Part shown: in pieces, positions 23,109 through 49,038 of the stretch
How positions within the stretch are numbered: the stretch's first letter is position 1
Layout: every line of letters begins with the position of its first letter
Assembly (NCBI GenBank): GCA_022821445.1
Contig: JAJEDQ010000138.1
Location: forward strand, 1 to 49,581
From: Acidimicrobiia bacterium
GTDB lineage: Bacteria > Actinomycetota > Acidimicrobiia > Acidimicrobiales > Bin134
Direction of reading: 5' to 3'
Length of the DNA stretch: 49,581 nucleotides
The notes under the pieces: model-generated
Told to the model about the DNA's origin: nothing
The model's input: only the letters and a program-made list of their open reading frames with translations
Database searches by the model: none
Made by a program: the position numbers and the translations under genes

Positions 23109-23154
23109 GACGCCCCCTTTGGCAAGACACTAGCCAAGGGGCGAAAACCCTGGG

Positions 23155-23228
<74 letters not shown>

Positions 23229-23269
23229 TAAATCTCATCCTACATATTGGGGTGGGCGAACAACATAGG

Positions 23270-23358
23270 CAGGCTGGGGGGTGGCTCGGCTCAGGGCGCC
23301 CGCCGCCCGGAGCTTGTCGAGGACGGCGGGCTGGGCCGAGGCAGGACCCGCCAGCCTG
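23270..23358 (+). ncRNA. Structured intergenic repeat, copy A
   Basis: About 89 bp that fold into nested helices: P1 CAGGCTGG (23270-23277) with CCAGCCTG (23351-23358); P2 CTCGGCTCA (23285-23293) with TGGGCCGAG (23332-23340), including one T-G wobble; P3 GCCCGCCG (23298-23305) with CGGCGGGC (23324-23331). A second copy lies at 48839-48931 with different but still paired stems. The wobble favours the plus-strand transcript. It lies just upstream of the tRNA-Pro 5' end. Function unknown; a REP/MITE-like element is the alternative. Confidence 0.55.
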
Positions 23359-23370
23359 TCGGGGGACGGT

Positions 23371-48789: not shown

Positions 48790-48838
48790 AAGCCCCGTCA
48801 GCCGTATTCGATTCCCGTCCTCCACAACCGACGAGGTA

Positions 48839-48931
48839 GGCCGAGCGGGGGGTGGCCCGGCTCAGGGTGCCCGCCGCCCGGAGCTCGTCGAGGACGGCGG
48901 GCTGGGCCGGGACAGGACCCGCCGCTCGGCC
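48839..48931 (+). ncRNA. Structured intergenic repeat, copy B
   Basis: Same core as 23270-23358. P1 is GGCCGAGCGG (48839-48848) with CCGCTCGGCC (48922-48931), a sequence unlike copy A yet perfectly paired. P2 CCCGGCTCA (48856-48864) pairs with TGGGCCGGG (48903-48911); the second pair is C-G where copy A has T-A. P3 is identical in both. It lies 49 bp after the sigma gene stop and before the 3' end of tRNA-Sec, so it may also serve as 3' structure of the sigma transcript. Confidence 0.55.
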
Positions 48932-48945
48932 GGTCTCGCGCCAAG

Positions 48946-49038
48946 CGGAGGTGGACGGGAATCGAACCCGCCGGACGGGGATCGCCCGTCCCACCCGCTT
49001 TGAAGGCGGGGGAGCCCACCAGGCGCTCAGACACCTCC
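48946..49038 (-). tRNA. selC: tRNA-Sec (anticodon TCA)
   Basis: 93 nt on the minus strand. Anticodon stem CCCGC/GCGGG encloses the loop CTTCAAA, giving anticodon TCA for UGA codons; this loop is the same as in known bacterial selC. A long variable arm pairs GGACGGG with CCCGTCC. T arm GCGGGTTCGATTCCCGT. Acceptor GGAGGTG pairs with CACCTCC, with discriminator G and no encoded CCA; an extra C-G pair would extend the stem outward. With selA and selB at 26-29 kb the decoding machinery is nearly complete (selD is not in the window). Confidence 0.93.

What the first reader, a model, noticed from the sequence alone, without database searches (positions are those of the whole stretch)
48839..48931. 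Structured repeat near both tRNA genes with compensatory base changes
Two copies (23270-23358 and 48839-48931) share a core of about 75 bp. Seen: the outer stem has a quite different sequence in each copy but is perfectly paired in both (8 bp and 10 bp). In the second stem a T-A pair in one copy is C-G in the other. The remaining differences fall outside helices. This pattern is the mark of a conserved RNA or hairpin-forming DNA. One copy is upstream of tRNA-Pro, the other next to selC. No known family comes to mind.
Basis: partly seen in the sequence, partly recalled or inferred. Interest (0 to 1): 0.8.

Follow-up and report, generated by a model that had tools for sequence, protein, structure and literature searches.

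The report
Nested hairpin repeats between bacterial genes
The two copies belong to a family of mobile-looking DNA hairpins scattered between the genes of a group of mostly uncultured actinobacteria; they favour places where two genes end facing each other, appear to exchange parts between copies, and at some places lie nested inside one another.

Summary
The two copies are 2 of 26 BLAST matches in their own genome; the genus has 139 covariance-model matches in 16 of 22 genomes. Named hits are almost all Acidimicrobiia-type MAGs, including "Sva0996". Fold and covariation are real (196 cells changed on both sides, shuffled mean 53.9). No Rfam family fits.

It behaves less like a cis-acting RNA than like a dispersed intergenic palindrome. 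Sites are filled or empty in different species. Convergent gene ends are preferred, and no orientation bias was detected in co-directional gaps (10 versus 7). Different species carry different core types at one site. At one site a complete element lies inside the arms of another. One copy has a 5' half that is a 44/46 inverse copy of its 3' half, so arm copying can make part of the "compensatory" pattern. In the outer stem G-U exceeds A-C mismatches 23 to 2, which points to the plus strand as the folding one.

No mobilising enzyme was found (Y1 transposase 0 of 22, reverse transcriptase 2 of 22). Closest kinds: REP/REPIN, ERIC, YPAL. The tRNA neighbourhood looks coincidental.

The parts
48835..48935 (+). 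Type I element, copy next to selC (stem P1 GGCCGAGCGG/CCGCTCGGCC, inner stem GGG/CCC, loop TGG/ACAGGA, P2, P3, apical loop)
48837..48850 (+). 5' tag T-AGGC, 5' arm of P1 and the first G of the inner GGG
   Evidence: alignment; logo (T at -1 in 76% of 70 non-redundant copies of both types)
48922..48933 (+). 3' arm of P1 with the closing GG
48807..48820 (+). Second, outer 5' arm TTCGATTCCCGTCC; its exact reverse complement lies in selC at 48953-48966
   Evidence: seen in G000 (both contigs) and G013, not in the 8 other genomes where selC follows the sigma-factor gene directly
23264..23364 (+). Type I element, copy upstream of tRNA-Pro; the same site is filled in G010 (L066) and G003 (L116, different P1 arms)
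23153..23228 (-). tRNA-Pro(cgg), neighbour only
48945..49038 (-). tRNA-Sec (selC), neighbour only

Best explanation
A family of non-autonomous, mobile-looking intergenic palindromes (hairpin of about 95 nt plus a short 5' leader and 3' tail; sites with it are about 120-150 bp longer than empty ones), working like REP/REPIN, ERIC and YPAL repeats. Shown: many dispersed copies; sites empty in some species and filled in others; preference for convergent gene ends with no orientation bias detected in co-directional gaps; two core types in one P1/internal-loop frame, found at the same site in different species; at one shared site a complete element inside arms that elsewhere close a simple element; one copy with an inverse-copied half; an excess of G-U over A-C in P1. 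Inferred: the plus strand folds as single-stranded DNA (or an RNA intermediate) during mobility; existing hairpins, older copies included, are favoured entry points; outer arms stay complementary partly through template switching or conversion between arms and copies and partly through purifying selection on the folded plus strand. The mobilising enzyme is unknown.
For: Copy number 26 in G000; 139 model matches in 16 of 22 genomes. Empty sites: of 15 genomes aligned at the C72 site 10 are empty, 2 have type I, 2 type II, 1 unrelated DNA; of 19 rows at the L007 site 11 lack it, 2 have type I, 5 type II, 1 a remnant; of 15 at the L003 site 9 are empty and 6 filled. Of 55 type I sites, 41 had both neighbours called and no overlap: convergent 21, co-directional same 10, opposite 7, divergent 3; spacers without element in the window and 71 loci: 57 convergent, 208 co-directional, 72 divergent; Fisher p 3.3e-6 for convergent against the rest, orientation p 0.63. 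Type II, 25 copies: 96.0% of cells paired (shuffled 86.5), 60 double-changed cells against 16.9. Nesting: simple element in G014, complete element inside the same arms in G012 and G021; a second outer stem of 10 or more perfect pairs at 15 of 52 sites, shuffled mean 2.35, maximum 5 (7 of the 15 are one related 'long form'). Inverse copying: arms complementary at 44 of 46 positions in one G021 copy. Strand: G-U 23, A-C 2 over distinct P1 haplotypes.
Against: No partner enzyme: Y1 transposase 0 of 22, reverse transcriptase 2 of 22; other transposase families not tested. No target-site duplication was seen by eye at the three aligned sites; flanks have diverged too far to exclude one. The G-U excess is a P1 matter: P3 has 6 G-U and 5 A-C, and related haplotypes are not independent. 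Plus-strand energies are lower, but the RNA z-score at the selC copy is better for the minus strand (-5.16 against -4.50). Patchy filling of identical sites could be inheritance with repeated precise loss. In genus g15 a distant relative has one full-length or nearly full-length match in each of five of six genomes, which looks more like a fixed structured RNA.
Confidence: 0.6

Rival explanations
1. A 3'-end RNA element (bidirectional terminator or mRNA-end stabiliser) kept by selection on the RNA hairpin, and only secondarily copied around.
For: Preference for convergent gene ends; the called upstream stop is often 20-60 nt away (crude gene calls); G-U excess in P1; conserved internal loops and a U-G pair in 94 of 100 copies.
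Against: No T-run after the hairpin (logo); 10 of 15, 11 of 19 and 9 of 15 aligned orthologous sites lack it; at 7 of 17 co-directional sites the folding strand is antisense to both neighbours.
Confidence: 0.22
2. An independent small RNA gene family acting in trans, amplified in this genus.
For: Strong fold and covariation in two core types; distant low-copy relative in genus g15.
Against: Different core types at the same site in different species; one element inside another; 0 to 30 model matches per genome. Promoters were not examined.
Confidence: 0.1
3. The outer-stem covariation has no selective meaning: arms are made and repaired by replication template switching, as in any long palindrome. 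(Compatible with the best explanation; its odds overlap.)
For: One copy with 44 of 46 inverse-copied positions; outer 5' arms that match the reverse complement of flanking gene DNA at selC (14 bases) and at the L005 site (12 bases); mechanism published (PMC8794818, abstract and opening text seen).
Against: G-U 23 to A-C 2 in P1 is not expected from unbiased mutation of repaired arms; the asymmetric loop TGG/ACAGGA is nearly invariant. That abstract says template switching can also explain asymmetric pair frequencies, so this is not decisive. I did not screen the copies systematically for inverse copying.
Confidence: 0.3

Closest known systems
REP / REPIN (GTAG-tagged palindromes; PMC3733652 and PMC3116915, passages seen)
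   Same: Palindromes mostly in intergenic space, convergent and co-directional gaps favoured and near 3' ends, TAGG-like 5' tag; compensatory changes are reported for REPIN hairpins.
   Different: No Y1/RAYT transposase in 22 genomes; here the core is conserved and the outer stem varies, whereas the REPIN passage describes conserved ends and a less conserved spacer. The passages name Proteobacteria, Cyanobacteria, Chloroflexi and PVC as GTAG hosts; 'actinobacteria' occurs 0 times in that main text.
YPAL/RU-2 and ERIC/RU-1 (PMC2229807, passages seen)
   Same: 127-168 bp, stable stem-loops, intergenic; YPAL targets span or adjoin dyad symmetry and it is not A+T-rich.
   Different: Both are listed there with target-site duplications, none was seen here; I did not compare sequences with them. 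Nesting inside its own kind is seen here.
Hairpins made or mended by template switching (PMC8794818, abstract and opening text)
   Same: Inverse-copied arms; perfect stems gained in one step.
   Different: Described there as a mutation process in RNA genes; here within a dispersed repeat family.

Membership tests
REP/REPIN (RAYT-mobilised) | RAYT/Y1 transposase in the genome | tested here: not met
   PF01797 in 0 of 22 genomes; the same search rang in 5 of 14 control genomes
REP/REPIN (RAYT-mobilised) | GTAG tag at one end of the palindrome | tested here: inconclusive
   T before AGG in 76% of 70 non-redundant copies; the base before it is G in 46%
REP/REPIN (RAYT-mobilised) | Mostly extragenic, convergent or unidirectional gaps | tested here: met
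   38 of 41 sites convergent or co-directional; crude gene calls, 25 of 104 listed copies overlap a called ORF
MITE | Conserved terminal inverted repeats | tested here: inconclusive
   the outermost three pairs keep one type in 75-86 of 100 copies, but P1 as a whole has 57 haplotypes in 100 copies
MITE | Target-site duplication | tested here: inconclusive
   none seen by eye at three aligned sites; flanks diverged
Rfam structured RNA families | Covariance-model match at gathering score | tested here: not met
   window: only the two tRNAs; with lax threshold type I none, type II six hits far below gathering score, type III none
Intrinsic terminator | Hairpin followed by T-run | tested here: not met
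   downstream logo reads about GGATGGTAAC, no T-run, 70 non-redundant copies
ERIC/RU-1, YPAL/RU-2 | Sequence homology to those repeats | not tested
   no reference sequence was compared

The most novel reading that the evidence does not exclude
A class of mobile palindrome without strongly conserved terminal repeats whose target is a hairpin, its own older copies included. It inserts between GGGTGG and ACAGGACCC of an old copy, turns the old arms into an outer stem, and so grows nested ladders while template switching renews the arms.
Probability: 0.2. Interest if true: 0.75.

Novelty: new variant of a known kind. Interest (0 to 1): 0.52.

Why it matters
Compensatory base changes are commonly taken as proof of a functional RNA. 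This family offers natural examples, at orthologous sites with empty counterparts, where that pattern comes with whole-arm differences between species, nesting and one frank inverse copy. That makes the question of how much covariation is mutational directly testable. It also adds a lineage without a detected RAYT to the puzzle of how small bacterial palindromes move.

Tried and rejected
RAYT/IS200-type mobilisation: no Y1 transposase found. Reverse-transcriptase mobilisation: only G006 and G012 of 22, and G006 has no element match. tRNA-associated function: no tRNA near the other copies read. Phage or plasmid carriage: no exact pattern match in viral contigs, no BLAST match of the selC copy in plasmids or phages. 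Rfam with lax threshold. The Streptomyces hit of the exact pattern scan (L168) was not followed. Integron attC-like ends (leader CCAAC) were considered from memory only, not tested. Literature: five searches; in their listings (10, 11, 4, 10 and 10 rows) I saw no paper on such repeats in Sva0996 or Acidimicrobiia; that says nothing beyond those searches.

Limits and dropped rows. Gene context rests on a crude ORF/GC3 method of mine. One search collapsed copies identical over the core and 40 nt on each side and kept only copies with both core ends (105, one of them a reverse-strand false match in L102). A1 has 100 of the 101 references; the near-duplicate L002 was left out, the damaged L133 and copies cut by contig ends before it. 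Searches also leave out L002 and L133. One search kept 93 of 127 with clear AGG/CCGG anchors, 70 after redundancy removal. One search skipped 14 ortholog pairs; its pair counts are over all pairs of copies at a site and are not independent; its flank identity is of the aligned parts of the upstream flank only. One search skipped haplotypes with three or more non-standard pairs; the count over copies that does not skip them is 905 Watson-Crick, 34 G-U, 14 A-C, 57 other. In one search, columns 46/56 do not pair in 41 of 100 copies, 20 of 500 shuffles reach the observed number of further pair types. One search (leaders and tails at shared sites) gave leader/tail identity 0.69/0.66 where arms differ and 0.75/0.79 where kept, against 0.57/0.59 between sites: leaders and tails are thus only moderately kept, and I do not lean on it. 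One search used strict filters on a sample of the class and can miss weak matches. One search returned nothing through a slip in my filter and was repeated.

Full report
What was claimed and what is there. Both are present, fold well (z -4.50 and -5.66 as RNA, 0 of 200 shuffles as good), and lie beside tRNA-Pro and selC. A BLAST search of the own genome gave 26 matches, so this is a dispersed repeat.

Distribution. In the genus, 15 of 22 genomes have a BLAST match and 16 of 22 a covariance-model match, 139 matches in all, 0 to 30 per genome. An exact pattern scan of named genomes returned 72 stretches, all but one (a Streptomyces record) from MAGs titled Acidimicrobiia, Acidimicrobiales, Sva0996 or just bacterium. 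In a sample of 395 genomes of the class, under strict filters, 9 had a match: five of this genus and four of another genus (g15) in another family of the same order. There the relative has the same end and internal-loop letters but a longer apical arm. A BLAST search of 51 genomes of that family gave matches in 9: one full-length or nearly full-length match in each of five of the six g15 genomes (three of them with a partial second piece), and pieces of 26-40 nt in four others. In the one g15 locus whose reading frames I listed, the element overlaps the start of a frame that reads like a peptide ABC-transporter ATPase (naming by eye, no family search).

Anatomy. From 100 aligned copies: P1 of ten pairs with a T-AGG 5' tag and a CCGG 3' end, a G-G or T-G position, GGG/CCC, the asymmetric loop TGG/ACAGGA, P2 of eight pairs with a U-G pair in 94 of 100, loop AGGGC/T, P3 of about ten pairs and a variable apical part. 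96.3% of cells pair (shuffled 89.2), 13 pairs and 196 cells changed on both sides (shuffled 8.2 and 53.9). Most of this is in P1, but P2 has it too (columns 24/77: CG 89, GC 10). One proposed apical pair (46/56) fails in 41 of 100. A second core type shares P1, GGGTGG and ACAGGACCC but has other inner helices: 25 copies give 96.0% pairing and 60 double-changed cells against 16.9.

The folding strand. Over distinct P1 haplotypes there are 23 G-U and 2 A-C mismatches; over P1-P4, leaving out the nearly fixed U-G pair, 35 and 9 (binomial p 2e-5 and 1e-4). P3 alone gives 6 and 5, so the asymmetry is a P1 matter, and haplotypes are related, so the p values are too small. G-U on the plus strand is A-C on the minus strand, so the plus strand is probably the one whose pairing is kept. 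The plus strand has the lower energy as RNA and as DNA; z-scores favour it as DNA for both copies, as RNA for one of two. Yet in co-directional gaps the plus strand is sense at 10 sites and antisense at 7. This fits folding as single-stranded DNA or in a mobility RNA better than a cis-acting mRNA element.

Empty and filled sites. Of 15 genomes aligned at the C72 site, 10 have two convergent gene ends side by side without it, two have type I, two type II, one has unrelated DNA. Of 19 rows at the L007 site 11 lack it, two have type I, five type II, one a remnant; of 15 at the L003 site 9 are empty and six filled. On the species tree the holders are scattered: G000 holds the C72 copy, its near relatives G007 and G010 do not (the node joining these three has support 0.43). 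At selC two genomes have the element (G013 cut by a contig end), and five others (G012, G014, G015, G019, G020) show, by eye, only its 3' part.

Exchange and nesting. The 102 copies fall into 55 sites, 27 of them with copies from two or more genomes. There P1 is often kept, sometimes one step apart, sometimes wholly different: over all ortholog pairs 476 stem pairs are the same, 97 changed on both sides, 24 on one side still paired, 13 broken; cores are 95% identical, aligned upstream flanks 87%. Several differences run over most of the stem at once, so I read part of the covariation as exchange of whole hairpins. At one site G007 has the short form, G012 and G013 the long form, and G008 the short form followed by the 3' half of a long form. 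At another, G014 has a simple element closed by GGGGTCGG/CCGACCCC; G012 and G021 have the same arms outside, and inside them a complete element where the core would be. A second outer stem of at least 10 perfect pairs is present at 15 of 52 sites (shuffled mean 2.35, maximum 5); 7 of the 15 are the related long form.

Inverse copying. The G021 copy at 1425659-1425758 has a 5' half that is the reverse complement of its 3' half (44 of 46 positions). That the 5' half is the changed one is inferred from the other copies. At selC in this genome and in G013 the outer 5' arm TTCGATTCCCGTCC equals the reverse complement of selC letters; it is absent from the eight other genomes where selC follows directly. 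At the L005 site the outer 5' arm matches, over 12 bases, the reverse complement of what reads as the end of the convergent gene; no empty counterpart was examined there. Template switching is known to do this (PMC8794818, abstract and opening text).

Weighing. The family is structured and not in Rfam. Its behaviour is that of a small mobile palindrome. The mover is unknown. How much of the P1 pattern is selection and how much arm copying or exchange is open, and the data of this genus could decide it.

Noticed in passing
window 48807-48820 and 48953-48966: A 14-base stretch 5' of the element is the reverse complement of selC letters; seen in G000 and G013, not in the eight other genomes where selC follows the sigma-factor gene directly.
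   Followed up: partly
L084 2055-2164 (G021:C1, about 1425654-1425763): Element copy turned into a near-perfect palindrome with 46-bp arms, 44 positions complementary.
   Followed up: yes
L325-L328 (site of L007, rows of G008, G011, G009, G013): A second short palindrome (GGGGCGGCGGC AAA GCCGCCGCCCC type) directly upstream of the type II element.
   Followed up: no
L306 1501-1614 (genus g15); L308 and L309 similar downstream letters: Distant relative of the element overlapping the start of a frame that reads like a peptide ABC-transporter ATPase; partial tandem copies beside it in L308 and L309.
   Followed up: partly
L009/L002 (contig C78 of the own genome): A 3-kb contig repeats the selC site almost identically, perhaps a strain variant or assembly duplicate.
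   Followed up: no
window copy 23264-23364, ortholog L116 in G003: At the tRNA-Pro site the outer stem differs between species (GGCAGGCTGG versus GGCGGTTTGG) while staying paired but for one position.
   Followed up: yes
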